Positions 12,441 through 31,639 are shown, counted from the stretch's first letter. The stretch is 64,000 nt of DNA from Pelagibius litoralis (GCF_011683915.1 NZ_JAAQPH010000023.1:1-64000); one strand, 5' to 3'. The notes: generated from the letters alone by a model not told the origin. Numbers and translations are program-made.

Positions 12441-12527
12441 TCTGAGAACGCGCGCTGGCTAAGTAGACCGTCCAACCCGCTTGCAATAGGGTTTCTTGTC
12501 GGGATGCCACGAGAAGCCCGAGAGGCC

Positions 12528-13487: not shown

Positions 13488-13596
13488 CGGACCGGTCGTG
13501 AGTGGAGAGGAACGCCGCATAGTCGTTTCGTTTAACGTCAGGCGATGAGTCCCGGGCTTTCATTCTGAGCCAGATCACGCAAAGAGGTGGGGATAT

Positions 13597-13869
13597 ATGC
13601 AGTGGGCTGCAGAACAGGTCCATGTGGAGGTCGTAAAGCTGCTTGAGCCTTTTAATCCGAAAGGTGTCGAGTTAAAGCCGGAAACAGATCTTTCCGAGGA
13701 TCTCTTTATGGACTCCGTCGCGGCCATGAATCTGGTCATGGAGGTCGAAGACCGATTTGAAATCGACATTCCCATCAGCCTGCTTCCAGACGTGAATTCG
13801 CTGCAGGATTTGGCGGACGTGGTGCTTGTTCAGCTCAACAAGAAACAGACCAATGAGCCTATTAGATAA
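13597..13869 (+). CDS. acpR: Dedicated acyl carrier protein for sphingolipid synthesis
   Basis: 90 residues, acidic, four-helix ACP fold. The phosphopantetheine attachment serine is Ser40 in DLFMDSVAAMN (the canonical D-S-L appears as D-S-V). A good ribosome site (agaggtgggg) precedes the ATG. The gene overlaps the start of serine palmitoyltransferase by 17 bp, so ACP and SPT are probably made in step. In Caulobacter and Sphingomonas an ACP next to spt supplies acyl-ACP rather than acyl-CoA to SPT. Confidence 0.93.
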   Translation: MQWAAEQVHVEVVKLLEPFNPKGVELKPETDLSEDLFMDSVAAMNLVMEVEDRFEIDIPISLLPDVNSLQDLADVVLVQLNKKQTNEPIR

Positions 13870-15067
13870 ATACGATCAGGTTTCCGCGCGTCACAAGCGG
13901 CTTTTAGCCCTTGGCCGGGACCCTTTTGATGTCTGTATGGATCGTATTGTCTCGGCGACAGAGGCGATTATTGGCGGTCGAGACGTCATCCTGGTCGGTA
14001 CCAACAATTATCTGGGGCTGACCTTCGATCCTGATTGTATCGCCGCCGCGGCCGATGCGCTGGCCCGTGAAGGTACCGGCACGACTGGGTCGCGTATCGC
14101 TAACGGTACCTATGCGAGCCACCGGGAATTGGAGGAGGAGATCGCCGCATTTCTGGGGCGGCGCTCGGCGATGGTCTTTCCCACCGGCTATCAGGCCAAC
14201 CTCGGAATTCTGGCCGGCCTGGCGGGTCCCAAAGATATCATCCTGCTTGATGCGGACTCTCACGCCAGCATCTACGACGGCTGCCGGCTGAGCGGCGCCA
14301 CCCTTGTCCGCTTTCGGCACAATTCCCCGGCCGATCTGGACAAGCGTCTTGAGCGCCTCGATGGCGAGGCGGCAAGCAAGCTTGTGGTGGTTGAGGGCAT
14401 CTACAGCATGCTTGGTGATCAGGCGCCGCTCGACGAGTTTGTCGACGTCAAGCAGCGCCACGGTGTAGAGCTTCTGGTCGATGAGGCGCATTCTCTGGGC
14501 GTGTTCGGTGAACGCGGTCGAGGCCTTGCAGAGGCGGCAGGCGTCGAGGAAGAGGTCGACTACGTCGTCGGTACCTTCAGCAAAAGCCTGGGCGCCGTCG
14601 GCGGCTTCGGGGCGTCCGACAACCCTGGATTCGAGCGACTGCGTTATACGAGCCGGCCTTACATGTTCACGGCGTCCTCCTCGCCGTCGAGCATCGCCAC
14701 GGTGTTGGCGACCCTCGAAAAGGTCCGCTCCCGCCCCGAACTGCGCCGACAGCTATGGGAGAATGCGCGGGCGCTCTATAAGGGTCTGATGGATCTCGGC
14801 TTTTCTGTCTGTGCGGAGGCCAGCCCCATCATTGCCCTTAAGATGCCGAACGAAACCGCTGCGGTCTTCATGTGGAATGCGCTGCTGGAAGCGGGCGTCT
14901 ACGTCAATCTGGCCCTTCCACCGGGCACGCCGGACGGCAGCTGTCTGCTGCGGTGCAGTCTCTCGGCGTCGCACACGCCCCAGCAGGTCAAGCGGATCTG
15001 TGAGGTCTTTGAACAATCCCTTCACGCCCTTAAAGGCTGGCAGGCTGCGCAGTCGGCGGCTGAGTAG
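13853..15067 (+). CDS. spt: Serine palmitoyltransferase (alpha-oxoamine synthase)
   Basis: 404 residues of the alpha-oxoamine synthase family. GTGTTGSRIANGTY, the substrate-stacking His in DADSHASIYDG, the cofactor Asp in VDEAHSLGVFG and the Schiff-base lysine K244 in FSKSLGAVGG are all in place. The ATG at 13853 is chosen over an in-frame TTG at 13826. SPT condenses serine with a long-chain acyl thioester to 3-ketosphinganine, the committed step to sphingolipids. KBL or AONS are alternatives for the family, but the ACP, CerR, acyl ligase and CerS in the same locus decide for SPT. Confidence 0.92.
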   Translation: MSLLDKYDQVSARHKRLLALGRDPFDVCMDRIVSATEAIIGGRDVILVGTNNYLGLTFDPDCIAAAADALAREGTGTTGSRIANGTYASHRELEEEIAAFLGRRSAMVFPTGYQANLGILAGLAGPKDIILLDADSHASIYDGCRLSGATLVRFRHNSPADLDKRLERLDGEAASKLVVVEGIYSMLGDQAPLDEFVDVKQRHGVELLVDEAHSLGVFGERGRGLAEAAGVEEEVDYVVGTFSKSLGAVGGFGASDNPGFERLRYTSRPYMFTASSSPSSIATVLATLEKVRSRPELRRQLWENARALYKGLMDLGFSVCAEASPIIALKMPNETAAVFMWNALLEAGVYVNLALPPGTPDGSCLLRCSLSASHTPQQVKRICEVFEQSLHALKGWQAAQSAAE

Positions 15068-15085: not shown

Positions 15086-16042
15086 TTACTTGAAGGCTCC
15101 CTTGCGGTACAATCGCCAGAACAGAAAGCTTGAGGCGAGAATTGGGTGGCGCCGCTGCCAGGGTGTCAGGGTCACGGCGACCCCGGAATGCCGTTCAATC
15201 TTCCACAGCAAATAGTCGGGGCCTCCGACGAATGTGAAGGCCGCTTTCATCAGGCGCAGCACCGACAACAGCTTGCCTTGCGCGCGGCGCAGCAGCCACC
15301 TGGCCCGAACCGCCGTGCGCGCCTGCTCCAGCGGCATCCATTGCAGGGGCGACGGCCCTGCAGGTGGGGCGGCAGTGGCCGCCGCCGGCACCCGCAGGGT
15401 TGCGAGCACCGCGTTGCCGACCTGCTCAAAATAGCCCTGGTTTGCGTCGTAAAGCTTATCGGCCCGATCGGGCGCTTCTGCCCGTAACTCGGTCCGGTAC
15501 GTTTCCCGAAACACCGCGGTCCAGAGGTCGCGGGTGCTGAAGTTCTGCTCCATCAGCATCAGGCCCTCTTCTACCATCTTCCTTGCGGCCCTTGCCAGGA
15601 TCGCCGTTATGGCCGTTCGGGTCGCTTCGTTCCGGCAATACGCCAGTCTGCTCGGCTGGGCGAAACGAGCCCAGAGATAAGGATGAAACCAACGCCCGCC
15701 GGCGCCGGCTGCAAAGTCGGCGAGAGAGCATACGGCATACTTGGCGCGCAAGACGACAGCGTCGCCGTAAGCTGTCTCCAGGTAGTAAACGTTGGGTGGC
15801 AGTGCCCGGTTGAACAGCGCACTCAGGCGTCCGCCGTGGGCCTCCTTATAGCTGTCGACTATCAGATAGAGGTCGACCACCTTGTTCTGGACGCTGCTTT
15901 CGCGCAGGCAGGAGCCATAGAACAACACAGCCGCAACAGCGCCGTGACGGTGCTCCGCGGCTGCGGCGATGGCCGCGATCTGCTCCCCGACGGGTTGGGC
16001 GATCTCCGCGCGCAGCAGTGGCCCCAGGTCGTCGTCAGACAC
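15086..16042 (-). CDS. Uncharacterised protein with degenerate nucleotidyltransferase motif
   Basis: 318 residues, soluble. Residues about 37-62 read AVLFYGSCLRES..VVDLYLIVD, matching the minimal nucleotidyltransferase pattern G-S-x(n)-D-h-D, except that the second Asp is replaced by Tyr. The rest is helical with many Arg/Trp residues and no other motif I recognise. It is convergent with spt (18 bp apart) and lies 4 bp downstream of the lipid-kinase gene, so it belongs to the putative head-group operon. It may handle a nucleotide-activated head group. Function unproven. Confidence 0.6.
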   Translation of the reverse strand: MSDDDLGPLLRAEIAQPVGEQIAAIAAAAEHRHGAVAAVLFYGSCLRESSVQNKVVDLYLIVDSYKEAHGGRLSALFNRALPPNVYYLETAYGDAVVLRAKYAVCSLADFAAGAGGRWFHPYLWARFAQPSRLAYCRNEATRTAITAILARAARKMVEEGLMLMEQNFSTRDLWTAVFRETYRTELRAEAPDRADKLYDANQGYFEQVGNAVLATLRVPAAATAAPPAGPSPLQWMPLEQARTAVRARWLLRRAQGKLLSVLRLMKAAFTFVGGPDYLLWKIERHSGVAVTLTPWQRRHPILASSFLFWRLYRKGAFK

Positions 16043-16046
16043 CGGC

Positions 16047-17045
16047 TCAGATCCTCAGGAACTTTGCCTGGTCATCCGCAGTAAGGATGACCGGCTTGCC
16101 GGGCTCGGGCTCGAAGAGTTCGCCGTCCAGGGTAAAGGGGCAGTCCATTGTGAGGGCGATGCGGTCTGCCCGGCGGCTGAGATAGCTGTCTGACGGAAGA
16201 CTGCGGTTTTCCTTGCCGTAGAGCAGGCGCCAGGCGTAGCGAAAGATGCGCTCGGGCGGATAGGCGATGCTGGTGAACCGAAAGTGTCCTTCGCCACCGT
16301 TCCAAAAGGGGCGGCTGCCAAGCACCAGTCGTTCCAGGGTGGTTGCCAGGATCACCAAGCTGTTGAGCTCCAGCGCCGCCTGGTTGTCGAACGCGACTTC
16401 TATTCTGTCGCCGGAGAGTATCTTTTGGGTGGCTTCACCGTCGTCTCCGGCATCCTCGTGTGAACGCCCGCCACGCAGCAGCCACCCCCCCAGGATACCG
16501 GCCAGGGTAACCGCGGCGGCCGTATCGGCCTTGATCTTAAGAGGATGCACCTTGGCGCGGCAGGCTATAATAGCGCGATAGATGGCAGCGCCGCCGAAGA
16601 ACATGCCGTACTGCGGGTCTTTGCCGTGGGCATTCTCGAGTCGCAGCACCCGCCGCGTCAGTGTGGCGCTGTCGAGTTCATCATCGTCTGCCTTGCCCAA
16701 CAGGCGACCAAGGCCGCTCAGGTTTCCGCGCAGGCCGATGTCGTTGGCGATCATGTTGGTCATCCCGCAAGGGACCACCGCCAGGTGCGGCTGTATCTCG
16801 TAGGGGCGGTGGCCCAACAGAGCGGTGAGTGTGGCCTGTACCGTCCCGTCTCCGCCCGCGATAGCGACGATGCCTATTTCCTGTCGGGCGAAGTCCGCCA
16901 GGATTTCCGGAATGTCCGCCACGGAGTCGAGAACGGCATGGCGCGCCTGAGGGGCGTCGGCCAGCATCTTGCTGAGCTGGTCCAGGCCTTGTTTGTTTTT
17001 CTGGCTTCTTGGATTGGTGATAACGCCGGTTTTTGCCATGCTCAA
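16047..17045 (-). CDS. Diacylglycerol-kinase-fold lipid kinase, candidate ceramide kinase
   Basis: 332 residues. The DAGK catalytic fold is shown by the N-terminal NPRSQKN, the nucleotide-binding GGDGT at 64-68, VVPCGMTNMIANDIGL, and a C-terminal beta domain ending LDGELFEPEPGKPV, as in DAGK/YegS/sphingosine-kinase relatives. In Caulobacter a protein of this fold, CpgB, is a ceramide kinase in ceramide phosphoglycerate synthesis. The position 1 kb from spt and beside a CDP-alcohol phosphotransferase makes ceramide the best substrate guess. The start overlaps the upstream stop by 4 bp; a second in-frame ATG lies two codons in. Confidence 0.78.
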   Translation of the reverse strand: MSMAKTGVITNPRSQKNKQGLDQLSKMLADAPQARHAVLDSVADIPEILADFARQEIGIVAIAGGDGTVQATLTALLGHRPYEIQPHLAVVPCGMTNMIANDIGLRGNLSGLGRLLGKADDDELDSATLTRRVLRLENAHGKDPQYGMFFGGAAIYRAIIACRAKVHPLKIKADTAAAVTLAGILGGWLLRGGRSHEDAGDDGEATQKILSGDRIEVAFDNQAALELNSLVILATTLERLVLGSRPFWNGGEGHFRFTSIAYPPERIFRYAWRLLYGKENRSLPSDSYLSRRADRIALTMDCPFTLDGELFEPEPGKPVILTADDQAKFLRI

Positions 17046-18184
17046 TCGGGCTCTGTCATCCAGGATCGCAGCTTCTGGCCGTTACGGGTCGCCCACCAAG
17101 CCTGTACCAGCTGCAGGCCGTGCAGCAGCAGGCAGACTGCAGTCCATACCGCCACCGCCGCAAGCCCGACATCCGGCCATCCGGCGACAGTGGCAAGGGT
17201 AAGGAGAACAAGGTTTGGGTTGCGTCGCGCGGTCACCAGGCGGAACCAGGTATCAACGCGTCGCCATATGTGAATCTCAAGCCTGAAGCGCCAGATGGAA
17301 ATCCCTTCGATAACCCGTTGCAGCAGATATCCGCCGACAATGACCGTGAGCACAATCGCCAGGTCGTCCGGGGCAAGTGCGAGCGGGCCCTGTTGGAGAC
17401 CGATGCCCCAGGCCAGGTACCAGAAAGGGGGATGGATGAGATCGATCGAGTGGTCGAAGAAATTCCCGAACTTGCTGGATCTGAGTGTGATCCGGGCCAG
17501 TTTGCCGTCGACGGTATCGAGAAATGTCATCAGCCACCCGGCCAGCAGGCCGAGCCACCAACTGCCTTGCCAGAACCAATAGAAGGCGGCAATCACCGAT
17601 ACCAGGCTGAGCGCTGTTATCTGATTGGGTGTGATCCCGAGCCGCGCACAGAGCCTTGTGACGTAAAAGGCCGGGCGCGGCCATAACCATTTTGTAACGA
17701 AGTCGGTAGCGCCCTTGTAGGTGCCCATGAACATGCGCCACTCGGTCTGTGCGAGATCGTGGGGGCTTGGCAGCAGGGCGTAAGGCTCTTCGCGCTTGCG
17801 CAGCGCCTTCCAGTAAGACGCACCCAGTTCGGCGGCGCGGACCGGTTGCAGGCCCGTCGGCATCGCGACGCCGGGTTCTTCCCGCAACACCGCCGCCGCG
17901 GCGGGGAAGTCAGAGGTGGCGTGCGCGGCCAGCGGCGTGCCTTGGTGAGGCCCGTTGGCGAGCAGAACCGACCCCGGTGCTTCCAGCAGCGCCTTTACGA
18001 GGGGACCATCGATGACGGCGTCGGCGCGGACCAGTATCACGGGTCCACGCTGATCGGGGAGTGCCTGTTCATCGATGAATTGGGTGATGCCCACTGCAGC
18101 GAAACTTCGCCGCAGGCGCTCTGCCGAGCCCTCGAACCAGATCACCAGATCGCCGTGTCCAATCAGGCAGGCGGTCTTGGGCAT
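17042..18184 (-). CDS. CDP-alcohol phosphatidyltransferase with an N-terminal nucleotidyltransferase-like domain
   Basis: About 380 residues counted from ATG 18184; a GTG at 18247 would add a Ser-rich lead. The C-terminal half is a CDP-alcohol phosphotransferase with a perfect signature: D223-x2-D226-G-x2-A230-R231-x8-G240-x3-D244-x3-D248, in multiple membrane helices. Residues 1-150 form a soluble domain reminiscent of degenerate sugar-nucleotidyltransferases, an arrangement like archaeal/bacterial IPCT-DIPPS fusions. It should join a CDP-activated alcohol to a hydroxyl or phosphate acceptor at the inner membrane. In this locus ceramide or ceramide phosphate is the likely lipid partner. Confidence 0.8.
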   Translation of the reverse strand: MPKTACLIGHGDLVIWFEGSAERLRRSFAAVGITQFIDEQALPDQRGPVILVRADAVIDGPLVKALLEAPGSVLLANGPHQGTPLAAHATSDFPAAAAVLREEPGVAMPTGLQPVRAAELGASYWKALRKREEPYALLPSPHDLAQTEWRMFMGTYKGATDFVTKWLWPRPAFYVTRLCARLGITPNQITALSLVSVIAAFYWFWQGSWWLGLLAGWLMTFLDTVDGKLARITLRSSKFGNFFDHSIDLIHPPFWYLAWGIGLQQGPLALAPDDLAIVLTVIVGGYLLQRVIEGISIWRFRLEIHIWRRVDTWFRLVTARRNPNLVLLTLATVAGWPDVGLAAVAVWTAVCLLLHGLQLVQAWWATRNGQKLRSWMTEPD

Positions 18185-18375
18185 TTGAGAGCCGCTCGAA
18201 GACGAGGAACTCTCTTGGGACGTCCGTGGGTTGGTTTCAGCGCGCACTTAAATTCTCTTCGTCGTTATCTGTGGGCGCGGGAGCGGCCGTAGCGCTCCAC
18301 CGGTCGGACCTGCCCCGCCTTTTCAAGCGGACCGCGGCGGGGCGGTGGCTGGTATGGATTGTGTCTGATCATGGT

Positions 18376-19464
18376 CTAGGCCGGACGCTGCTTCAGCTCG
18401 TACCAGTAGGCGATGCTGGCCGCAACCATGGCGAACACGGCGAGGGGCGCGCCGCTAGCGATCAGCGGCGGCAACAAGCCGACTTCTCCCATCGCCAAGG
18501 TAATGCCGTTGAAGATGAAAAAGGAGAAGCCGATGGCGACACCACCCAGGAGAAGAATCCCCAAACGACCGGCGCGCTGCGACTGCTGCGCCAGGACCAC
18601 GCTCAGGCTCAGCATCAATAAAGGAACCAGGCACTGAGCCAGCTTTGCATAGAGCCAGGTTTCATAGAGATAGGGGGCCCAGGTACCCTGACCCTGGCCG
18701 CCGGTGAAACGATGGGTCTGACTGAGCGAGAGCTCTCTTGGATGTACCAGCAAGTGCTTCAGGCTGGACGTATCCAGATCGACAAGCCAGTCGCGTGTGT
18801 CCTCATGGACCGCCCGCCCTCCGGCGGAATTCATAGTGGTGATGTCGAAGAGCTGCCAGGTTCCGTCGTCATGATAGCGGGCGCTACCGACGTCCAGGCG
18901 TGCGATCAGCCGGCCCCGCGTGTCGCGGTCAAAGAGCGTGAAATCGCTCAGGCTATCGACCCCGATGTTGTCAGAGGGAATGCGGACGATGTCGTCGCCA
19001 AGGTGGATCCAGGTTATCCCGTCGGCCTTCTGTGGGCCTGGTCTGCCGGTATCGTTCACGCCCCCCCATTCACGAAGGGCATCCACGCTGGCGGGGACGA
19101 GCCGGTCGTCGACGACAAACTGCAGGCCGCCGAGCACAACAGCCAAAGGGATCAGGCGGCCCACCAGACCGAACTGTGAAACACCCGAGTTCCAAATCGC
19201 TGTCAGTTCGCCATGCCTGATAAGGAAAGTGAGAGTCAGGAGGCCCGCCAGTAGGGTCGCGATCTTGATCAGGTCGGAAACGATGGTCGGCGAGCGGAGC
19301 AGGGCGTAGCGGACGAGGGCTCGGACCCCACCGTCGTCGTGCGCTATTACGGCGTTCGCATTGGCCATCAGATCGAGCCCGATCAGGAATGCCGTCAAGC
19401 CACAGAGCAGGAGCGCGAAGCGTATCAGCAGCAGCCGCATCAGATATCGCGTGAGCAGGCTCAT
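18376..19464 (-). CDS. lptG: LptF/LptG-family permease (LptG position)
   Basis: About 362 residues counted from ATG 19464, which overlaps the stop of the lptF gene in an ATGA; a longer ORF start lacks support. It has three N-terminal membrane helices, a periplasmic beta-jellyroll-like domain (WIHLGDDIVRIPSDNI..) and three C-terminal helices (SLSVVLAQQSQRAGRL, GGVAIGFSFFIFNGITLAMG). LptF and LptG are the permease pair that extracts LPS from the inner membrane with LptB. Here the pair is embedded among sphingolipid genes and not beside lptD/surA, so a paralogous role in sphingolipid transport is possible. Confidence 0.85.
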   Translation of the reverse strand: MSLLTRYLMRLLLIRFALLLCGLTAFLIGLDLMANANAVIAHDDGGVRALVRYALLRSPTIVSDLIKIATLLAGLLTLTFLIRHGELTAIWNSGVSQFGLVGRLIPLAVVLGGLQFVVDDRLVPASVDALREWGGVNDTGRPGPQKADGITWIHLGDDIVRIPSDNIGVDSLSDFTLFDRDTRGRLIARLDVGSARYHDDGTWQLFDITTMNSAGGRAVHEDTRDWLVDLDTSSLKHLLVHPRELSLSQTHRFTGGQGQGTWAPYLYETWLYAKLAQCLVPLLMLSLSVVLAQQSQRAGRLGILLLGGVAIGFSFFIFNGITLAMGEVGLLPPLIASGAPLAVFAMVAASIAYWYELKQRPA

Positions 19465-20675
19465 TCCGGACGCTGCCCCCCGGCGGCGTTGGTTCCGGGC
19501 CGGACAGTCTGCAGCAATGACCTGAAGATATCCGTGGGAGAAGGCCAACCAATGCCGCGCGTAACCTGAAAGGCCCGCCGGTAAAACAGCGCGGTGCTGA
19601 CAGTGGCCAGCAGCGCGAGGGGCAACCACTGTCCGATGAGGGGCGAAATCTCTCCGGTCGACGTCAGCGACTTGCCGACGCTGAGTGCCTGATTGTAGAT
19701 GATCAGGATCAGCAGGCCGGCGGCAATGCCGTAGGCTTGGTGCGTGCGCCGAGGACCGATCGCGAAGGATACGGCCAGAAAGGGAAGGAAGAGGAGCGAG
19801 AAGGTCCGCACCAGCCGGTCATGAAACTCGCCAACCATCTGGTCGTAAGTGGCCCCGGGTGGCGGGGTCGAGCGGTACTCCCAGAGTTCGTGAAGGGTCA
19901 GTTCGCGTTCGTCTTCGCCGCGGGGCCTAAAGGCTTCCTGGCCAACCAGATTGGTGGGGATCTGCAATTGACTGAAGCTCAGGACGTCGAAGTTCGGCAG
20001 CCTTTCGCTCTTGGTCTTGTCGAGAGCATCCACCTCCAGACGAACACCGTTTGAAAGGACGAGGGTCGAGCGCTCGCCCTGGGGCGCCACGACCAGGCTG
20101 CCCTGGTCCGCCGTCGTCACAATGGTGCCGCCATCGCCGGTTTCCTCGTAGACGAATACGCCGCCGAAATCGCGGCTGCCGCGCCGGACTGTGTTGGCCA
20201 TGAAGGTGGCGCCGTTCACCTCAATAAAGGTGCGTTCCTGCAGATAGGTATTCACGGCTGCCGCGGCGACTTCGTGCACCATGGCGCGGTAAGTATAGCG
20301 GGCGTAAGGTTGTCCGATGCTGAAGTTGACGGCTGAGACGACGGTGAGGCCCAGGGCGAGAAGCAGGATCGGCCGCAGCATCTGTGCAAGGCCGATCCCG
20401 GCCGACCCCAGCGCATCCAGCTCGCGACCTTGGTGCAGCCGGCTGAAGGCGAGCAGCACGCCGAGAAAGAAGGCCGCCGGCAGAGCGAGAGCCATGTAGT
20501 GAGGGATCAGATAAGCAAGCATCTGTAAGAGGACGGTCAAGCCGCCTTGGGAATCCAGTACCAAGTCGAGCAGTCGCAGCATCCGCTCGGTAAGCAGCAC
20601 CAGCAGCGCAATGCCGATGCTGATCAGCAGGGGCATCATGGTCTGTCTTAGAAGATAGCTGCTGATCGTCGACAT
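19461..20675 (-). CDS. lptF: LptF/LptG-family permease (LptF position)
   Basis: 404 residues with the YjgP/YjgQ fold: helices near 10-30, 50-75 and 95-120, a large periplasmic domain (about 130-270, with FNGATF-like EVNGATFMANTV) and three C-terminal helices preceded by FHDRLVRTFSLLFLPFLAVSFAIGPRR. The coupling-helix region LGVLLAFSRLHQGRELDALGSAGIG matches the LptF site that docks the LptB ATPase. It is first in an lptF-lptG pair with 4-bp overlap. No LptB-like ATPase is in the vicinity. Confidence 0.88.
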   Translation of the reverse strand: MSTISSYLLRQTMMPLLISIGIALLVLLTERMLRLLDLVLDSQGGLTVLLQMLAYLIPHYMALALPAAFFLGVLLAFSRLHQGRELDALGSAGIGLAQMLRPILLLALGLTVVSAVNFSIGQPYARYTYRAMVHEVAAAAVNTYLQERTFIEVNGATFMANTVRRGSRDFGGVFVYEETGDGGTIVTTADQGSLVVAPQGERSTLVLSNGVRLEVDALDKTKSERLPNFDVLSFSQLQIPTNLVGQEAFRPRGEDERELTLHELWEYRSTPPPGATYDQMVGEFHDRLVRTFSLLFLPFLAVSFAIGPRRTHQAYGIAAGLLILIIYNQALSVGKSLTSTGEISPLIGQWLPLALLATVSTALFYRRAFQVTRGIGWPSPTDIFRSLLQTVRPGTNAAGGQRPE

Positions 20676-20702
20676 GGGCCTTCTCGTTTGCGGTCCGTGT
20701 CT

Positions 20703-21131
20703 CTAGGCCGATGCGTCGGGCCAAGCCGCTTTTACGGCGGCGGCGAGGTCGGCCAGCGTGGCGGCATCCGGTGTCGTTCCGGACGATAGCAGCGGCGCGC
20801 CGGGCCAACCTTCGTCTTGGTATACCGTTCCGTCGAACAGCTGGTCGCTGTCGTAGCGGGGCAGAACGTGAAAGTGTACATCCGGGTCGACCATCATGAG
20901 CATCAGGTAGTTCATCTTCTGGTAGGGTCGAAAAGCGCTGAGTCCGGCTTCGATATCCTGGATAACCTGTTGCAGTTCGCCAAAGGCGGCGGCGCTGATA
21001 TCGCCGAAAGCTCGGGCATGGTCCTTGCAGACCAGAACCAAGGCCCCCAGGGTCGCTTGATGCGGGCGTAGCAGAACGACCCAGTGCCGGTGGTCGCGGA
21101 CCAGGGTTTCGGGGAAGCCGAACTTCGTCAT
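20703..21131 (-). CDS. HIT-family protein
   Basis: About 142 residues from ATG 21131, chosen because the longer ORF adds a charged, non-homologous lead. The HIT fold is shown by RDHRHWVVLLRPHQATLGALVLVCKDH and the motif VDPDVHFHVLPRY, which retains the first two His of the histidine triad; the third, normally catalytic position is less clear. HIT proteins cleave nucleotide phosphoanhydride or phosphoramidate bonds. It lies 27 bp upstream of lptF on the same strand and may be cotranscribed. Confidence 0.8.
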   Translation of the reverse strand: MTKFGFPETLVRDHRHWVVLLRPHQATLGALVLVCKDHARAFGDISAAAFGELQQVIQDIEAGLSAFRPYQKMNYLMLMMVDPDVHFHVLPRYDSDQLFDGTVYQDEGWPGAPLLSSGTTPDAATLADLAAAVKAAWPDASA

Positions 21132-21299
21132 CGTGGCATTGGGTGGACTTGACAAACTCACGGTAGGGTCATACCTCGCTGAGATTGGCGTAACGCACGC
21201 TGGCGGCGGTAAATGGGGATATCTCTGCCACTTCGTTCGTACTATCCGACGCTGCCTGGGACGAGCAACCTTGTGTTGGAACATGTAAAGGGCGATGTG

Positions 21300-21818
21300 A
21301 TGACGGCTCTCCGCTTTTTAAAGACAAGGTTGGGATGCGCAAGCTTGGTCATACTTCTTGCGTTTACGCTGGGCCTCGTCTCCGCGGGGCTGCTGCCGGG
21401 CCGCGCTGTTGCAGCGGACCAACCGGCCTGTTCTGCGGAGACCGCCGCGTCGATTGAGGTAAAAGTCGAAAATGTACGCAATTCCAAAGGGTTGATAACA
21501 GCGGTTCTGTACGGCGACAACCCAGAGGCATTCCTGAAGAGGGGACAGCGGCTGGATCGAATAAGGGTAGCAGCCAAAGAGGGCGAGACTCTCCTCTGCC
21601 TGCAGGCACCGGTCGAGGGGCGTTATTCGATCGCACTCTATCACGATGAGAACGGCAACAAGAAATTCGATCGGAATTTCCTTGGGATTCCCTCGGAAGG
21701 CTATGGTTTCTCGAACAACCCCGGTTTCCGCTTCGGCAAGCCAGAGCAGAAGGAAACGCTGTTCACAATCGTTGAAGATGGCCCGACCAGCCTGCGGATT
21801 TCGATCCTCTACCTCTAG
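21300..21818 (+). CDS. DUF2141 secreted protein
   Basis: 172 residues. Start at ATG 21300, preceded by aaagggcg. A Sec signal peptide occupies about 1-33 (hydrophobic core SLVILLAFTLGLVSAGLL, cleavage near AVA-AD). The mature part has the DUF2141 signature: IEVKVENVRNSKGLI, YSIALYHDENGN with a following acidic loop, and FLGIPSEGYGFSNN. The D-E-N-G-N-K-K-F-D loop could bind calcium. DUF2141 proteins have no established function. It is divergent from the HIT/lptFG operon. Confidence 0.85.
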   Translation: MTALRFLKTRLGCASLVILLAFTLGLVSAGLLPGRAVAADQPACSAETAASIEVKVENVRNSKGLITAVLYGDNPEAFLKRGQRLDRIRVAAKEGETLLCLQAPVEGRYSIALYHDENGNKKFDRNFLGIPSEGYGFSNNPGFRFGKPEQKETLFTIVEDGPTSLRISILYL

Positions 21819-21853
21819 CCGCTATCTCCGGCTCTTGTTTCTGGCCCCTGCCT

Positions 21854-22822
21854 CTAGATCGTGTAGCGCCGGGCCTCTGCGAAGCGCCCGCTGACAGGGT
21901 CGAGGCCGCGTGCGGTAACCTCAATGCGCCAGTGGCCGTCCTCACGCGCAATCGCGTAGGTTTGATAGTGAGCCTGGGGTTTTTTGCCGCTGTGGGCTGC
22001 CGACGCAGAGGGGACGCCAAGCACTGGCACCGACTGTCTGCCGGCAGGGATTCGCACGTCGGCGAACTTGTGGTCGTGACCATGCAGGATCAGTTCGGCG
22101 CCGTGTTCGGCAATGACCTTGCGGAAAGGCTCCGCATCGACGAGGCGTTTGCGCCGGGCGATGCCCTCGAGGCTCGGGGGGTGGTGGAGCAGCACGACCC
22201 GGAACCATCCCTCCTGGCCTAATTTTTGCAAATGTTGGCCGAGGCGGTGCAATTGCGCTTCTCCCAGGGTGCCGTGGGCACAGAACAGCGGCGTCGGCTG
22301 TGCCGAACTCAGGCCGAGGATGGCGGCCGGTCCACGAAAGCGCACAAAGGGAAAGGCATCGGGCCCAGTCGGCGGCCTGGGCTGCCCACCGGCATTCGGC
22401 TCGTCGGCCATGAAGGCCTGCCATTTGGCGAGTGTCGTTTCCCAGGGAACGGCCACATAGGCGTCGTGGTTTCCGGGGATCACGGTGACCCGGTCGGCAC
22501 TGCCCAGGCTCTGCAGCCATACCTCGACCTGGGCGAATTCCTCAATGAGGGCGATATTCGTCAAGTCACCGGTGATCACCAGATGATCGGCGTTCGAGAC
22601 CGCAAGGTCCTTGGCCAGCGCCGCCAGAACCTCCGGGCGGTGCAGCGCGCGGCGTCGGCGCAACCACGACAGGTAGCCGAAAAAGCGCTTGTTCAGCAGA
22701 TCCGCCACCCGGATGGGCGGAAGGGGACCCAAATGGGGATCTGATAGATGAGCAAGGGTAAAGCTTGCCAAGGCGTCGGTCCCGGCTGGCTGCGCTAGTG
22801 GTTGACGTGACAGTTGGAACAT
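21854..22822 (-). CDS. Calcineurin-like metallophosphoesterase
   Basis: 322 residues from ATG 22822. All metal-binding motifs of the family are visible in order: D-x-H in LSDPHLG, GD in VITGDLTN, GNHD in VIPGNHDAY, a His in VVLLHHPP and G-H-D-H in LILHGHDHKF. Such enzymes hydrolyse phosphomono- or diesters; relatives include cyclic-nucleotide and UDP-diacylglucosamine phosphodiesterases. No signal peptide, so probably cytoplasmic or membrane-peripheral. Divergent from the cytidylyltransferase-like gene with about 60 bp between. A role in processing a phospholipid or nucleotide intermediate is plausible but unproven. Confidence 0.88.
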   Translation of the reverse strand: MFQLSRQPLAQPAGTDALASFTLAHLSDPHLGPLPPIRVADLLNKRFFGYLSWLRRRRALHRPEVLAALAKDLAVSNADHLVITGDLTNIALIEEFAQVEVWLQSLGSADRVTVIPGNHDAYVAVPWETTLAKWQAFMADEPNAGGQPRPPTGPDAFPFVRFRGPAAILGLSSAQPTPLFCAHGTLGEAQLHRLGQHLQKLGQEGWFRVVLLHHPPSLEGIARRKRLVDAEPFRKVIAEHGAELILHGHDHKFADVRIPAGRQSVPVLGVPSASAAHSGKKPQAHYQTYAIAREDGHWRIEVTARGLDPVSGRFAEARRYTI

Positions 22823-22880
22823 GTGATCAAAACGGCCTTCAGGGTCAAAGGTAAAATCGTCGCAAGGGGTTCTTTCTGCG

Positions 22881-23654
22881 TTGAAAGCATTGGTTATCGG
22901 GGCCGGCCAGGGCCGGCGCCTGCTCCCGCTCACTGAAATCGAGCCCAAGGCGCTTCTCAACGTTGGCGGCAAAAGCCTGCTTGCGTGGCAGGCCGAAGCA
23001 CTGGTCGACTGTGGCGTCGACGAGATCGTGTTTCTGGCCGGCTTCAACCTGCCGGCGGTCGAGCGCGCCCTTAAGCATTTCGCGGCGCGTTGGCCGCAAA
23101 CGGATTTCCGTGCGGTCTATAATCCTTTCTACGGGGTCGCCGACAACCTGGCGACCTGTTGGATGGCCCGACAGGAGATGGATAGCGACTTTCTGCTGCT
23201 GAACAGTGATACTTTGTTCAGTCAGCCGGTGCTTCAGACGCTGTTGTCCAGCCCATCCGCGCCGATCAGCTTGGCCGTGGATCACAAAGCCAAATACGAC
23301 GACGATGACATGAAGGTCGAACTGCAGGGGGCCAGGCTGTTGGACATCGGCAAGACCCTGCCGCCCGAGAGGGTCCAGGGCGAGTCCATCGGCATGTTGT
23401 TTTTTCGCGGCGAAGGCCCGCAGCGTTTCGTCGCAGCCCTGGAAGCGGCCATGCTCGAACCCAGGGCGATCCGGCAGTGGTATCTTTCCGTGATCGCGGC
23501 GTTGGCGTCGGAGATCGAAATACAGGCGGTGACCATCAGCGGTCACGACTGGTGTGAGATCGATTATCCTGTGGATCTGCAGACCGCGCGCCGTATGGTG
23601 GCGTCCTGGCGGCGCAAGCCGGACGACACCTTGATTTCAGTCATGTCCTCTTAA
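22881..23654 (+). CDS. Nucleotidyltransferase, sugar/alcohol-phosphate (LicC/IPCT-like)
   Basis: 257 residues. The N-terminus has the signature G-A-G-Q-G-R-R-L-L-P-L-T with PKALLNVGGKSLL. VYNPFYGVADNLATCW and LLLNSDTLFS place the metal-binding Asp, and WCEIDYPVDL is the C-terminal substrate/metal site seen in phosphocholine and inositol-phosphate cytidylyltransferases. Start is TTG at 22881. It would make a CDP-alcohol, the donor needed by the CDP-alcohol phosphotransferase at 17042-18184. The 3' end overlaps the convergent NTP-transferase gene by 18 bp. Confidence 0.82.
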   Translation: MKALVIGAGQGRRLLPLTEIEPKALLNVGGKSLLAWQAEALVDCGVDEIVFLAGFNLPAVERALKHFAARWPQTDFRAVYNPFYGVADNLATCWMARQEMDSDFLLLNSDTLFSQPVLQTLLSSPSAPISLAVDHKAKYDDDDMKVELQGARLLDIGKTLPPERVQGESIGMLFFRGEGPQRFVAALEAAMLEPRAIRQWYLSVIAALASEIEIQAVTISGHDWCEIDYPVDLQTARRMVASWRRKPDDTLISVMSS

Positions 23655-24449
23655 GGCCTTCTCGACGAGTTCCAGATCCTCGGGCTTGTCTACATCGATT
23701 GCCGCTTCGGCAAACGGCATCTTGATGGCCGCCACCGAGACGCCGAGGCGCTCAGAAACGCGCGCCATGACGGTATCAAGGCTGAACCGCCTCAGCAGAT
23801 AGCTTAGCAGGAGAGCGGGTCCAAAGAGGGCGGCGATACGCCAAGGCCGTTTGCGTTGCTGCTCAACCTTGCGCCACAGCTCTATGACCGCAACACCGGC
23901 CTCGGCCCTCAGGGCAAAAATGTTGCTGCCGGAATAACGTTCGTTGCGAAAAGCGAGGTAGGTGCGCTTGGTGTGTGGATAGCGAGCCAGAATCACCTCG
24001 GCGGCCGTCACGCCCGCCGTGAGATCGGCATCGCAACGCAGACTCTCTGTGCAGAAATGATCGATCATCTCGGTGGTCAGCAGGGCATGGTCCGCCGTTG
24101 TGATCAGCAAGGGAAGGGGATGGTTCAGTTCGGCGACAGCCTGCAGCACGCTTTGGCTGGGCGTATCCTCTGCCTGCAGCGGCACAACGCGCCCGCTGTC
24201 GCAGAGCCGGACAAGCCCTTCGAGCTGTGTGATCAGGGCCGGATCACGCAGAGAGACGGCGATCGAGCCTATCCAAGGGCTCGCCGCCAGGGTCTCGATC
24301 ACCCGTTCCAGCATCGGTTTGCCCGCAACCGGCGCCAGGCACTTGTGATCGACCCCTGCGGCGCGCGATACCGGGTCGTCCGGGCCCCGGTCAGCCGCCA
24401 GCACCAATGCGGTGAAGCGCCCGTCGGGGCCATTCGCCTCCGCCGTCAT
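23637..24449 (-). CDS. MobA-like NTP transferase domain protein
   Basis: 270 residues. The glycine-rich loop at the N-terminus is atypical (LVLAADRGPDDPVSRAAG) but is followed by KCLAPVAGKPMLERVIETL, LLITTADHALLT (metal site) and AIDVDKPEDLELVEKAL, the normal NTP-transferase C-terminus. A hydrophobic/basic segment near 185-205 (RPWRIAALFGPALLLSYLLRR) might touch the membrane. Its start overlaps the stop of the ceramide synthase gene by 4 bp, so it belongs to the hydroxylase-cerS operon. Possible role: activation of a polar head group. Substrate unknown. Confidence 0.75.
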   Translation of the reverse strand: MTAEANGPDGRFTALVLAADRGPDDPVSRAAGVDHKCLAPVAGKPMLERVIETLAASPWIGSIAVSLRDPALITQLEGLVRLCDSGRVVPLQAEDTPSQSVLQAVAELNHPLPLLITTADHALLTTEMIDHFCTESLRCDADLTAGVTAAEVILARYPHTKRTYLAFRNERYSGSNIFALRAEAGVAVIELWRKVEQQRKRPWRIAALFGPALLLSYLLRRFSLDTVMARVSERLGVSVAAIKMPFAEAAIDVDKPEDLELVEKALRGHD

Positions 24450-25603
24450 GGGCTGAGTTCGCGCTGATAGAGGCGATAGGTTTTGTAGACGACACCGCCT
24501 AAATGCTCGATCAAACGGCGCATTGGCTGGTTATCTTCGAGAATCCACGACAGCTCCGCACTTTCCACGCCGAGGGATCTCTGTGCCTGCAGAATCCTGT
24601 CGATCACCGCGAATGCCAAAGTCGCGCCCAGCATGCTTCCGTGATACTCGCGGCGCACCCCCATCAACGGCACGCGGACGGTCTTGGTCGTCTTCACCTT
24701 CAGCCGCCAAAGCAGCTTGGCCCAGCCAAATGGCAGCAAGCGGCCGTCTAAGTCGGTGATCGCTTCATTCACGTTGGGCACCCCGATTGCCATGGCGACC
24801 GGCGCGCCGTTCAGTTCGGCTATGGCGATCGACTGGGGGCGTATGATGGGTTTCAGGTCCTTGGCCAGGCGGTGAATCTCGGCCTGGGACATGGGCACGA
24901 AGCCCCAGTTTTCGGCCCAGGCATCGTTGAAGACCTCCATGATATTGTTCAGGTCCTGCGCGTAGCGGCGCATGTCGAGTGACCGGACCGTCAATTTCTC
25001 CGTTGTGTCGGCCTTGCGCAGGAGAACGGCAACGGCGGCGGGCTGCTCGTTCTTCGCATCGTAGTGGTAGCACAGCAGGTCCTTGTTTTTGCGATATCCC
25101 AAGGCCTCCAGCTGTGCCGCGTAGTAGGGGCGGGCATGTCCCATCATCAATGAGGGTGGATATTCGAAGCCATCCACCAGAAGGCCGGATTCCTCGTTGA
25201 TCGACAGGCTGAAGGGGCCGACGGCCTGCTGCATGCCATGGCCGCGAAGCCAGGTCTCGGCGGTGGTCAGGAGCGTCCGGAAGGTTTCTGTTCGATCCTC
25301 GGCTTCAAGCATACCGAAGTGGCCGGTGGCGTCGTGATGCCTGGCCAAATGGGCCTGGTTGACCTGGGCCGAGATGCGGCCGACTGCCCGGCCGCCGCGC
25401 AGAGCCAGCCAGAAACGCGCCTCGGCCCTATCGAAGAAGGGGTTCTTGCGGGGGTTCAGATGGTCACGGCGCTCCTGAAGCAGCGGCGGAACCCAGGCGG
25501 GGTCGTCGCGGTAGAGCGTCCAGGGCAGACGGATGAAGGCTTCCCTGTCGGCCGCAGACTCCACAGCCTTGACGACCAGCGGTTGTTTTGAATCGCTGTT
25601 CAT
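24446..25603 (-). CDS. cerS: Bacterial ceramide synthase (GNAT-fold N-acyltransferase)
   Basis: 385 residues. The N-terminus FIRLPWTLYRDDPAWVPPLL and NPFFDRAEARFWLALRGGRAVGRI, together with GPFSLSINEESGLLVDGF and a C-terminal GNAT-like domain (SAELSWILEDNQPMRRLIEHLGG), match the protein family whose Caulobacter member (CC_1154, CerS/bCerS) acylates the sphingoid base. It is usually annotated only as an N-acetyltransferase. The occurrence of spt, acpR, cerR and aasR within 15 kb makes this the missing fifth ceramide gene. It is cotranscribed with an upstream sterol-desaturase-type hydroxylase. Confidence 0.85.
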   Translation of the reverse strand: MNSDSKQPLVVKAVESAADREAFIRLPWTLYRDDPAWVPPLLQERRDHLNPRKNPFFDRAEARFWLALRGGRAVGRISAQVNQAHLARHHDATGHFGMLEAEDRTETFRTLLTTAETWLRGHGMQQAVGPFSLSINEESGLLVDGFEYPPSLMMGHARPYYAAQLEALGYRKNKDLLCYHYDAKNEQPAAVAVLLRKADTTEKLTVRSLDMRRYAQDLNNIMEVFNDAWAENWGFVPMSQAEIHRLAKDLKPIIRPQSIAIAELNGAPVAMAIGVPNVNEAITDLDGRLLPFGWAKLLWRLKVKTTKTVRVPLMGVRREYHGSMLGATLAFAVIDRILQAQRSLGVESAELSWILEDNQPMRRLIEHLGGVVYKTYRLYQRELSP

Positions 25604-25688: not shown

Positions 25689-26453
25689 TCATTCACTCCT
25701 GCTGCGCCGCGGTACTGTGCTGCCGTCGGCGGCGAGGCCGGAGAGCAGAGCCACCCAGGGAAAGCGGGCCGTCTCCGGGCCTGTATAGCCCAGGTTGAAT
25801 ACCGTCTGGCTGCGCGGAACCTGTTTGGCATCGGCATAGAAAGTATTGAAAACCCGGTCCCAGAAGAAGTTCGTGATGCCGAAATTACCATGCTCGCTAT
25901 GGAAATGATGCGCCAGGTGGTGTCGCTTGATCCGCCGCAGGAAAGCTGTCTTCGGTTTGAAGGGCAAGTGCTGGATGCAGTGGCAGAATTCGTAGAAGCA
26001 AGTGATGATTACGCCGGTGGCCGCCGCCGCGGCCGCCGTGCCCGGTCCGCCGATCAGCCAGCCGATCGGAACGGCAACCGCCAGGATCGTCGGCAGTGTG
26101 GTGTAGAGGGCGCCAAACAGCACCCCGAGGTCATGGGGATCCTGATGATGGTCGAAATGAATGCGCTTCCACAGCGCCGCCGTCTGCGGATACTTGTAGA
26201 GCAGGCGCCCATGCAGCACGAACCGGTGCAGCAGATACCAAACGACAGGGTAGACGAGGGCTGTGGCAGCGACAGCGCCGATCATTGCAAGCGGATGAGC
26301 GCCCCAGTAAGCCGCAAGTACGATCCCAGCGATACTGAAAAGCGCGTAAGCCTGGATGGCCGGGTAGGTCACGTAGGCCCAGACCAGATCCCGGAGAGTC
26401 ATCTTGTCGAGAAAATACTTTCGATCTGACCAGGGCGTTCTGCCAAACAGCAC
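25689..26453 (-). CDS. Sterol desaturase/fatty acid hydroxylase superfamily protein, candidate ceramide hydroxylase
   Basis: 254 residues with four or more membrane segments and the di-iron histidine boxes of the superfamily: HRFVLHGR, HFDHHQDPHDLG and HHLAHHFHSEHGNFG, in the order and spacing of FA2H-like hydroxylases. These enzymes insert oxygen into acyl chains at the membrane. It is the first gene of the operon containing cerS, so hydroxylation of the ceramide acyl chain or sphingoid base is the natural inference. C-5 sterol-type desaturation is the generic alternative but no sterol gene is near. Confidence 0.85.
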   Translation of the reverse strand: MLFGRTPWSDRKYFLDKMTLRDLVWAYVTYPAIQAYALFSIAGIVLAAYWGAHPLAMIGAVAATALVYPVVWYLLHRFVLHGRLLYKYPQTAALWKRIHFDHHQDPHDLGVLFGALYTTLPTILAVAVPIGWLIGGPGTAAAAAATGVIITCFYEFCHCIQHLPFKPKTAFLRRIKRHHLAHHFHSEHGNFGITNFFWDRVFNTFYADAKQVPRSQTVFNLGYTGPETARFPWVALLSGLAADGSTVPRRSRSE

Positions 26454-27313: not shown

Positions 27314-27459
27314 TATCTCCCCTGTTTCCCAAGAGCGCGCCGTGACAAGCGGGCCCTTTACCGCGTCGGCCAGGGGATATAAACCCTAGAACGGGTCGTC
27401 GGCAATTGTCCCTGTGCGGGAGCGGTCAGCGCCGACCCTTTGATCCGAAGGTGACACGT

Positions 27460-28611: not shown

Positions 28612-28613
28612 CC

Positions 28614-31609: not shown

Positions 31610-31639
31610 CCCGCAACGTCACTGAACCGGCGAAACACA

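What the first reader, a model, noticed from the sequence alone, without database searches (positions are those of the whole stretch)
15086..24449. Putative sphingolipid head-group module with CDP-alcohol chemistry
Around spt lie a DAGK-fold kinase, a CDP-alcohol phosphotransferase with a perfect catalytic signature fused to a nucleotidyltransferase-like domain, a LicC/IPCT-like cytidylyltransferase, a MobA-like protein and a degenerate nucleotidyltransferase. Together they could make ceramide phosphate, CDP-alcohol and a phosphodiester head group. The Caulobacter phosphoglycerate system uses a similar kinase, but the two extra nucleotidyltransferases point to a different or larger head group.
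Basis: inference. Interest (0 to 1): 0.78.

Follow-up and report, generated by a model that had tools for sequence, protein, structure and literature searches.

The report
Ceramide phosphoglycerate head-group gene cluster
This stretch holds the genes that put one or two phosphoglycerate groups on a bacterial ceramide, a pathway already known from Caulobacter, here with a probable enzyme of its own for handling phosphoglycerate.

Summary
The listed genes are there, but the chemistry is not new: they match the ceramide (di)phosphoglycerate (CPG/CPG2) pathway of Caulobacter, in a Pelagibius-group alphaproteobacterium. A Caulobacter-like genome carries the same genes. Window CpgD keeps 10 of 11 published residues. 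The 'degenerate' protein 15086-16042 is CpgC, a Tam41 relative, which favours CTP activation of ceramide-1-phosphate.

Beyond what I found in print: (1) CpgA and CpgD are absent together in 13 of 13 and present together in 7 of 7 classed genomes (2 of 22 unclassed). (2) A HIT protein tracks them (0 of 13 against 5 of 7). (3) A divergent phosphoglycerate mutase sits in the cluster in the window's genome and 6 of 6 congeners, all with gpmI elsewhere, and near CpgD in 40 of 40 Nitrosomonadaceae loci; 21 of 21 such genomes tested have a second, canonical mutase. Seven CpgD loci from other lineages lack it nearby. It is a candidate dedicated phosphoglycerate enzyme in these two lineages. No activity was tested.

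The parts
10656..12440 (+). AasR-like fatty acyl-AMP ligase (ceramide synthesis)
   Evidence: NF006624, 758 bits against cut-off 600; homologue in 48 of 80 CpgC loci
12504..13487 (+). CerR-like SDR reductase (ceramide synthesis)
   Evidence: Pfam Epimerase; homologue in 42 of 80 loci
13597..13869 (+). AcpR-like acyl carrier protein
   Evidence: ORF; homologue in 41 of 80 loci; no family scan was run on it
13853..15067 (+). Spt, serine palmitoyltransferase (start placed at the ATG at 13853)
   Evidence: NF047599, 632.6 bits against cut-off 500; homology begins at 13856
15086..16042 (-). CpgC (CC_1161) orthologue; Tam41-like nucleotidyltransferase, predicted CTP:ceramide-1-phosphate cytidylyltransferase
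   Evidence: 35% identity to the Caulobacter-like CpgC; profile hits Tam41 structures 6ig2/6ig4 at E about 7e-5; at least one family member above the Pfam Tam41 cut-off; AlphaFold model mean pLDDT 90.5
16047..17045 (-). CpgB (CC_1160) orthologue; DAGK-fold ceramide kinase
   Evidence: Pfam DAGK_cat E 1.5e-13; 31% identity to the Caulobacter-like CpgB; present in 74 of 80 CpgC loci
17042..18247 (-). CpgA (CC_1159) orthologue; CDP-alcohol phosphotransferase with an N-terminal domain of unproven ancestry (start uncertain)
   Evidence: Pfam CDP-OH_P_transf E 3e-10; motif invariant in 26 of 26; 43% identity to the Caulobacter-like CpgA
18376..19629 (-). LptG2-type permease (predicted sphingolipid export; ORF start uncertain)
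   Evidence: TIGR04408, 189.7 bits, below cut-off 240
19461..20675 (-). LptF2-type permease (predicted sphingolipid export)
   Evidence: TIGR04407, 227.2 bits, just below cut-off 230
20703..21284 (-). HIT-family protein that co-occurs with CpgA/CpgD (ORF start probably later)
   Evidence: Pfam HIT, 20.3 bits, just below the cut-off 21.5; VHFH motif invariant in 19 of 19; 0 of 13 type-B against 5 of 7 type-A genomes
21213..21818 (+). DUF2141 protein, role unknown
   Evidence: Pfam E 5.2e-29; in 11 of 80 loci
21854..23047 (-). Metallophosphoesterase, CC_1158-like (ORF start probably later in the reading direction)
   Evidence: Pfam Metallophos E 1.6e-14; 40% identity to the Caulobacter-like gene
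22881..23654 (+). CpgD (CC_1152) orthologue; CTP:phosphoglycerate cytidylyltransferase
   Evidence: 45% identity to the Caulobacter-like CpgD; 10 of 11 published residues identical
23637..24449 (-). CC_1153 orthologue; MobA/IspD/CofC-like nucleotidyltransferase, substrate unknown
   Evidence: 43% identity to the Caulobacter-like gene; profile hits TTHA0179 E 1.6e-39 and, weakly, 3-phospho-D-glycerate guanylyltransferase 7p97 E 0.0035
24446..25603 (-). CerS (CC_1154) orthologue; GNAT-type ceramide synthase
   Evidence: Pfam Acetyltransf_1; 45% identity to the Caulobacter-like CerS
25689..26453 (-). Fatty acid hydroxylase, candidate ceramide hydroxylase
   Evidence: Pfam FA_hydroxylase E 1.2e-20; in 35 of 80 CpgC loci
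26555..27313 (-). Divergent 2,3-BPG-dependent phosphoglycerate mutase; candidate dedicated phosphoglycerate enzyme of the pathway
   Evidence: TIGR01258, 260.2 bits against cut-off 81.7; syntenic in 6 of 6 congeners examined; gpmI elsewhere in 7 of 7; a related mutase near CpgD in 40 of 40 Nitrosomonadaceae loci; none near CpgD in 7 loci of other lineages
33271..34989 (-). MsbA/PglK-like ABC exporter, possible sphingolipid flippase (weakly linked)
   Evidence: the 25 of 187 HMM hits listed are all below their cut-offs; found in 15 of 80 CpgC loci

Best explanation
The locus makes ceramide, phosphorylates it and decorates it with one, then a second, phosphoglycerate group (CPG, CPG2), and probably exports it with its own LptF2/LptG2. 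Shown in Caulobacter by others: CpgB phosphorylates ceramide; CpgD makes CDP-glycerate from CTP and phosphoglycerate, preferring D-2-phosphoglycerate; CpgB and CpgC are needed for CPG, and CpgA, CpgD and CC_1153 for CPG2. Shown here: the window carries orthologues of all of these, with the CpgA motif, 10 of 11 CpgD residues and the conserved nucleotidyltransferase positions of CpgC and CC_1153 in place (CpgB residues were not checked). Inferred: CpgC is a Tam41-type cytidylyltransferase that turns ceramide-1-phosphate into CDP-ceramide (about 0.6), and CPG forms from it by a step not yet assigned. CpgA moves phosphoglycerate from CDP-glycerate onto CPG with loss of CMP. CpgA, CpgD and usually the HIT protein form an optional second-phosphoglycerate module, because they are present or absent together while CpgB/CpgC and mostly CC_1153 stay. 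The divergent phosphoglycerate mutase 26555-27313 belongs to the pathway (about 0.6), most likely feeding CpgD with 2-phosphoglycerate (about 0.4). Its pocket residues differ from glycolytic mutases, so it may instead act as a phosphatase or mutase on another phosphoglycerate compound. The overall confidence below is for the identification as a CPG/CPG2 locus.
For: Gene content matches CC_1152-CC_1162, and a Caulobacter-like locus, L243, is collinear with the published order; the window has the same genes in one run with two neighbouring blocks inverted. In L243 all 11 published CpgD residues sit at their published numbers, and the ORF begins MQPVKTL and ends EAEAV as the published cloning primers encode; 10 of the 11 are identical in the window, the exception being Gly111 to Ser. 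CpgC: profile against Tam41 6ig2/6ig4 E about 7e-5; 12 of 52 members hit Pfam Tam41 at E 0.1 or better; L030 scores 30.2 bits against the cut-off 24. CpgA/CpgD genome-wide: both absent in 13 of 13 type-B genomes, both present in 7 of 7 type-A genomes, 2 of 22 unclassed. HIT: 0 of 13 against 5 of 7. Mutase: the window's genome has no other close homologue (next best hit 32 bits); 6 of 6 congeners have it in the cluster as their only dPGM above cut-off; gpmI elsewhere in 7 of 7; 40 of 40 fetched Nitrosomonadaceae CpgD loci have HIT and dPGM nearby, 39 of 40 dPGMs within 5.3 kb; 21 of 21 Nitrosomonadaceae genomes with CpgD that were tested have exactly two dPGMs, the second one canonical and elsewhere.
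Against: No lipid or enzyme was measured. The Pfam Tam41 match of the window CpgC itself is below threshold (14.9 bits against 24), the Caulobacter-like CpgC hits no Pfam family at E 0.05, and a 12-sequence profile reached a Tam41 structure only at E 0.2. No structure comparison could be run. The transferase that would use CDP-ceramide is not identified, and loss of CpgA does not stop CPG. CC_1153 is published as needed for CPG2 but persists in most genomes without CpgA/CpgD, so its role is unresolved. Mutase: no mutase gene within the DNA held around CpgD in 7 of 7 loci from other lineages, the Caulobacter-like one included, and none in the 80 named CpgC loci; that second absence is weak, because the 10 kb flank also misses the mutase of the congeners L013-L017. 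The mutase is thus a lineage-limited addition. HIT is absent in two type-A Dongia genomes and from the held DNA of 4 of the 7 other CpgD loci, one of them, L239, with a nearly complete cluster. CC_1157 mutants show low cofitness with the cluster. Genomes within a clade are not independent, so the P values overstate the case.
Confidence: 0.85

Rival explanations
1. The module makes a head group different from, or larger than, the Caulobacter one.
For: A fatty acid hydroxylase, a mutase and glycan-type genes follow the cluster and are syntenic in 6 relatives, one gene missing in one of them. Two Dongia loci carry a second CDP-alcohol phosphotransferase.
Against: All nucleotidyltransferases of the window have Caulobacter-like counterparts, and the residues that contact glycerate in CpgD are kept.
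Confidence: 0.1
2. CpgC does not activate ceramide-1-phosphate but attaches glycerate to it directly, as first proposed from mass spectra in the Caulobacter work.
For: Published proposal. No transferase that would consume CDP-ceramide is known. The window CpgC is below the Pfam Tam41 threshold.
Against: The authors themselves call it energetically not very favourable. The family is related to Tam41-like nucleotidyltransferases and keeps the YGS and Asp motifs in 52 of 52.
Confidence: 0.25
3. The mutase gene at 26555-27313 is an unrelated glycolytic enzyme that happens to lie beside the cluster.
For: No mutase lies in the held DNA around CpgD in 7 of 7 loci of other lineages or in the 80 named CpgC loci (flank too short to exclude the window's arrangement). 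The two linked mutase clades may have separate origins.
Against: Linkage in the window's genome and 6 of 6 congeners and in 40 of 40 Nitrosomonadaceae loci, with another complete mutase (gpmI or a canonical dPGM) in all 28 genomes tested.
Confidence: 0.28
4. The genes act on glycerolipids or cell-wall precursors, for example phosphatidylinositol phosphate.
For: The best NCBIfam hit of CpgA is archaetidylinositol phosphate synthase, 53.3 bits against a cut-off of 180.
Against: That hit is far below cut-off. Ceramide genes are adjacent here and recur in the CpgC loci: Spt in 45, AasR in 48, CerS in 55 of 80.
Confidence: 0.03

Closest known systems
Caulobacter crescentus CPG/CPG2 locus CC_1152-CC_1168 (CpgA-CpgD, CC_1153, CC_1158, LptF2/LptG2)
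   Same: Same ceramide genes, kinase, CpgC, CpgA, CpgD, CC_1153, phosphoesterase and LptF2/G2 in one run.
   Different: Compared with the Caulobacter-like L243, two neighbouring blocks (phosphoesterase to LptG2, and CerS to CpgD) are inverted. The window adds a fatty acid hydroxylase and a divergent phosphoglycerate mutase on the strand of CerS; spt passes the SerpalmtaseBetaP model, not SerpalmtaseAlphaP.
Tam41 phosphatidate cytidylyltransferase (PF09139; PDB 6ig2, 6ig4, 7ecd)
   Same: CpgC shares the YGS...D-h-h-h-x-V-D stretch, the KYxVxS region, the RFxxP region and the Tyr/Arg stretch near residue 182.
   Different: Low identity; 40 of 52 members give no Pfam Tam41 match at E 0.1; predicted substrate ceramide-1-phosphate instead of phosphatidate.
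AF2299 / bifunctional IPCT-DIPPS CDP-alcohol phosphotransferases (PDB 4o6m, 4mnd)
   Same: Membrane CDP-alcohol phosphotransferase domain behind an N-terminal domain.
   Different: The CpgA N-domain has no detectable profile similarity to the pathway's own cytidylyltransferases and no Pfam hit; the donor is predicted to come from the separate protein CpgD.
2,3-BPG-dependent phosphoglycerate mutase GpmA (TIGR01258)
   Same: Arg8, His9, Arg60, Glu87, Arg88 and His182 are kept in 47 of 47 cluster mutases.
   Different: Several positions invariant in the housekeeping group are changed in both clades: Ser15, Ala21, Arg98, Thr183, Ser184 in 7 of 7 of the window clade; Arg114 to Gln in 40 of 40 of the Nitrosomonadaceae clade.

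Membership tests
CPG/CPG2 biosynthesis locus (Caulobacter type) | Ceramide genes spt, aasR, cerR, acpR and cerS present | tested here: met
   All five in the window, 10656-15067 and 24446-25603; acpR by ORF and homology only
CPG/CPG2 biosynthesis locus (Caulobacter type) | Orthologues of CpgA, B, C, D and CC_1153 together, as in CC_1152-CC_1162 | tested here: met
   Against the Caulobacter-like locus L243; gene order differs by two inverted blocks.
CPG/CPG2 biosynthesis locus (Caulobacter type) | CpgD residues that bind CTP and glycerate | tested here: met
   10 of 11 identical; Gly111 is Ser109 in the window, and in the paper Gly111 contacts through its backbone
CPG/CPG2 biosynthesis locus (Caulobacter type) | The organism makes CPG and CPG2 | not testable with these tools
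   Needs lipid mass spectrometry
Tam41-like cytidylyltransferase (CpgC) | Pfam PF09139 above the gathering score | tested here: inconclusive
   Window CpgC 14.9 bits against 24; relative L030 30.2 bits; 12 of 52 at E 0.1 or better; Caulobacter-like CpgC no hit
Tam41-like cytidylyltransferase (CpgC) | Profile similarity to solved Tam41 structures | tested here: met
   52-sequence profile: 6ig2 and 6ig4 E about 7e-5; the only other hit at E 1 or better is a nucleotidyltransferase-domain protein. The 12-sequence profile gave 7ecd at E 0.2 only
Tam41-like cytidylyltransferase (CpgC) | Same fold | not tested
Bifunctional IPCT-DIPPS | N-terminal cytidylyltransferase domain | tested here: not met
   No Pfam hit before residue 206; hhalign probability 0.1-0.2% to CpgD, CC_1153 and CpgC profiles; NF041135 matches only from residue 162. 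By sequence only; the structure job did not finish
CDP-alcohol phosphotransferase | DxxDGxxAR(8-9)GxxxDxxxD motif (motif recalled) | tested here: met
   Invariant in 26 of 26
2,3-BPG-dependent phosphoglycerate mutase | TIGR01258 above cut-off and catalytic residues | tested here: met
   260.2 bits against 81.7; six Arg/His/Glu columns kept in 47 of 47; which of them are catalytic is recalled
2,3-BPG-dependent phosphoglycerate mutase | Substrate-pocket residues of the glycolytic enzyme (recalled) | tested here: not met
   Several invariant positions of the housekeeping group are changed in both cluster clades

The most novel reading that the evidence does not exclude
Phosphoglycerate sphingolipid clusters have, in at least two bacterial lineages, taken in their own divergent phosphoglycerate mutase close to the CDP-glycerate synthase gene. 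This enzyme supplies or edits the phosphoglycerate of the head group. With it goes an all-or-none second-phosphoglycerate module (CpgA, CpgD, usually a HIT hydrolase that clears or recycles CDP-glycerate) on top of a core in which a bacterial Tam41 relative makes CDP-ceramide, a nucleotide-activated lipid for which one full-text search found no paper.
Probability: 0.42. Interest if true: 0.65.

Novelty: new variant of a known kind. Interest (0 to 1): 0.5.

Why it matters
CPG2 helps Caulobacter survive without LPS, and its head-group enzymology is half solved. The CpgD authors leave the in vivo phosphoglycerate substrate uncertain and raise the possibility of a dedicated, unidentified enzyme in C. 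crescentus. The mutase found here is a concrete candidate of that kind in two other lineages, though not near CpgD in a Caulobacter-like genome. The CpgC-Tam41 relation and the CpgA/CpgD/HIT co-occurrence turn open steps of the pathway into single-enzyme assays. The type-B loci predict organisms that should make CPG but not CPG2.

Tried and rejected
Rejected: a different or larger head group (the Caulobacter locus has the same nucleotidyltransferases). Rejected: 15086-16042 and 23637-24449 as degenerate enzymes (key positions conserved). Not supported: the CpgA N-domain as an IPCT domain; a weak AfCTD match is the only lead. Led nowhere: a primer pattern search for Caulobacter in 385 class genomes (0 matches); promoter and terminator scan (no excess over shuffles); search of the CpgB paper for residues (none found); clustering of type-B neighbourhoods for a replacement transferase (no clear candidate; ORFs in shadow frames were not removed). 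A single origin of the two mutase clades was neither shown nor rejected.

Papers seen: PMC12275187 parts 1-2 of 4; PMC11324152 outline, section 8 part 1 of 2, sections 9 and 13, and passages; PMC13228409 passages; PMC10331486 listing and a term search that returned no passage; all others only as search listings with abstract starts. Recalled, from no call: E. coli numbering and pocket residues of the mutase, the CDP-alcohol phosphotransferase motif, and AF2299's N-domain being called cytidylyltransferase-like.

Full report
What is there. Between 10656 and 27313 the window carries ceramide genes (AasR, CerR, AcpR, Spt, CerS), a DAGK-fold kinase, a CDP-alcohol phosphotransferase, three different nucleotidyltransferases, LptF2/LptG2-type permeases, a HIT protein, a DUF2141 protein, a metallophosphoesterase, a fatty acid hydroxylase and a phosphoglycerate mutase. 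Several neighbours are tightly packed on the minus strand: gaps of 4, -4 and -4 bases at CpgC/CpgB, CpgB/CpgA and CC_1153/CerS, and 85 and 101 bases at CerS/hydroxylase/mutase. The nearest named records are Pelagibius and Kiloniellaceae.

It is the Caulobacter CPG2 pathway. From PMC11324152, CC_1152-CC_1162 run CpgD, CC_1153, CerS, LptG2, LptF2, CC_1157, a phosphoesterase, CpgA, CpgB, CpgC and Spt. The window has the same genes but with two neighbouring blocks inverted in place: phosphoesterase to LptG2, and CerS to CpgD. All 11 published CpgD residues sit at their published numbers in L243. In the window 10 of 11 are identical (Gly111 is Ser), including Asn90 and Asn110 (hydrogen-bonded to the glycerate), Ser170 (water-bridged to it), and Met147 and Lys161 (van der Waals contacts that set the 2D preference). 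Window-to-L243 identities: CpgD 45%, CC_1153 43%, CerS 45%, CpgA 43%, HIT 46%, phosphoesterase 40%, CpgC 35%, CpgB 31%, LptF2 33%, LptG2 27%. In 80 named CpgC loci (the best 80 of 437 relatives; many cut by contig ends or the 10 kb flank) CpgB is present in 74, CC_1153 and CerS in 55 each, CpgA in 46, Spt in 45, CpgD in 33. CpgD is rare: 9 of 398 genomes drawn across the phylum have a strong match (one of the 9 seems to be a genome already counted).

CpgC. Published work notes an InterPro CDP-DAG synthase domain and leaves the mechanism open. Here the 52-sequence profile finds the Tam41 structures 6ig2 and 6ig4 at E about 7e-5. 12 of 52 members hit Pfam Tam41 at E 0.1 or better, and 4 hit Polbeta. 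L030 passes the gathering score. Against this, the window protein is below threshold, the Caulobacter-like one hits nothing, and a first profile of 12 sequences gave E 0.2. The most likely reaction is CTP + ceramide-1-phosphate to CDP-ceramide. The library holds no paper with that word (0 papers).

CpgA and the fusion. The CDP-alcohol phosphotransferase domain is clear. The N-terminal domain (residues 21-165) gives hhalign probabilities of 0.1-0.2% against the CpgD, CC_1153 and CpgC profiles, where CC_1153 against CpgD gives 91%. One short weak stretch aligns with the N-terminal part of an AfCTD fusion. The structure prediction meant to test it did not finish.

Two kinds of locus. Of 22 genomes searched whole, 13 (type B) have neither CpgD nor CpgA. 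Weaker paralogues do turn up in some: the best CpgD-model scores in type B are 91 bits or less against 324 or more in type A, and the best CpgA-model scores 89 or less against 449 or more. 7 (type A) have both. 2 were unclassed and dropped from the contrast: L085, which has neither, and L067, with scores of 128 and 95 bits. Type-B genomes were chosen because both genes were missing near CpgC, but absence from the whole genome was not guaranteed by that choice. In 20 type-B loci CpgB is present in 20, CC_1153 in 15 and the phosphoesterase in 14. This supports CpgA plus CpgD as an optional second-phosphoglycerate module. It sits awkwardly with the published placing of CC_1153 at the CPG2 step, which I leave open. 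CC_1153 resembles TTHA0179, IspD and, weakly, 3-phospho-D-glycerate guanylyltransferase.

HIT protein. Its subfamily is absent from 13 of 13 type-B genomes, present in 5 of 7 type-A genomes (two Dongia lack it), and absent from both unclassed ones; at loci, 0 of 20 against 16 of 29. It lies within 4.6 kb of CpgD, on the same strand, in 40 of 40 Nitrosomonadaceae loci. In seven further CpgD loci from other lineages it is in the held DNA of 3 and not of 4, among them L239, which has CpgA, CpgB and CpgC. By position it is probably CC_1157, which the authors call probably unrelated; the DUF2141 gene lies in the same gap, so this is not certain. They note that Z. mobilis lacks both CC_1159 and CC_1157, and that CC_1157 mutants show low cofitness with the cluster, which counts against a role.

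Phosphoglycerate mutase. 26555-27313 scores 260.2 bits to TIGR01258. The next best hit in its genome has 32 bits. In 6 of 6 congeners examined it is syntenic and the only dPGM above cut-off. All 7 genomes carry gpmI elsewhere. One more genome of the genus, G006, 86% complete, gave no CpgC hit and was not examined. In Nitrosomonadaceae, 44 of 61 genomes have CpgD. I fetched 40 of the 43 besides Nitrosospira multiformis Nl12. All 40 have a dPGM near CpgD, 39 within 5.3 kb and one at 10.1 kb on the other strand; Nl12 has it too. In 27 of 40 a gene lies between that in the one case scanned is a fatty acid desaturase. 21 of 21 CpgD-bearing genomes tested have exactly two dPGMs at E 1e-25 or better: one canonical (382-408 bits) elsewhere and one divergent (238-269 bits) by CpgD. 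Against a wider link: none of seven CpgD loci from other lineages, the Caulobacter-like L243 included, has a mutase in the held DNA, and none of the 80 named CpgC loci does. The second result is weak, because the 10 kb flank also misses the mutase of the congeners L013-L017. The two cluster clades each form one group on long stems (1.74 and 1.07 changes per column). A joint clade is not rejected on a subset of 36 of the 76 rows (p-AU 0.241). Six Arg/His/Glu columns are kept in 47 of 47, but other columns invariant in the housekeeping group differ in both clades, so a changed substrate is possible. PMC12275187 raises the possibility of a dedicated yet unidentified enzyme that produces phosphoglycerate for CPG2. 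Two searches found no paper linking a mutase to this pathway (of the 259 papers matching only 10 were listed).

Judgement. The finding is a real head-group module of a known kind, misread only in its claim of a different head group. The new content is the mutase link in two lineages, the module split and the Tam41 relation of CpgC, all comparative and untested at the bench.

Noticed in passing
L082:3088-4302 (-) and L066:3147-4373 (-): Dongia sphingolipid clusters carry a second CDP-alcohol phosphotransferase (about 34% identity to CpgA over its C-terminal part) beside CpgA, and whole-genome hits show a third about 16 kb from CpgA: a possible route to longer phosphoglycerate chains.
   Followed up: partly
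window 25689-26453: Fatty acid hydroxylase next to CerS, found in 35 of 80 CpgC loci including Nitrospirota; candidate ceramide hydroxylase at the locus, whereas Caulobacter's candidate CC_0202 lies elsewhere in the genome.
   Followed up: partly
L170:7784-8827 (-) and equivalents: A gene family lying between HIT and the mutase in 27 of 40 Nitrosomonadaceae CpgD loci; the one member scanned is a PF00487 fatty acid desaturase.
   Followed up: partly
window 27406-33237: ELM1-family, Kdo-transferase-like, GT8-like, FkbM methyltransferase and 2OG-oxygenase-like genes follow the cluster and are syntenic in 6 of 6 relatives, except that the FkbM gene was not found in one of them; several of these family matches are below the Pfam cut-off.
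   Followed up: partly
L027-L060 (various): CpgC/CpgB clusters occur in contigs labelled Nitrospirota and Deltaproteobacteria, beyond the alpha-, beta- and gammaproteobacteria discussed in the paper section I read.
   Followed up: no
window 9271-10017: IS6/IS240-type transposase gene just upstream of the ceramide genes (Pfam DDE_Tnp_IS240).
   Followed up: no
window 13853-15067: spt passes the NCBIfam model SerpalmtaseBetaP (632.6 bits against cut-off 500) but not SerpalmtaseAlphaP (498 against 670) although the host is an alphaproteobacterium.
   Followed up: no
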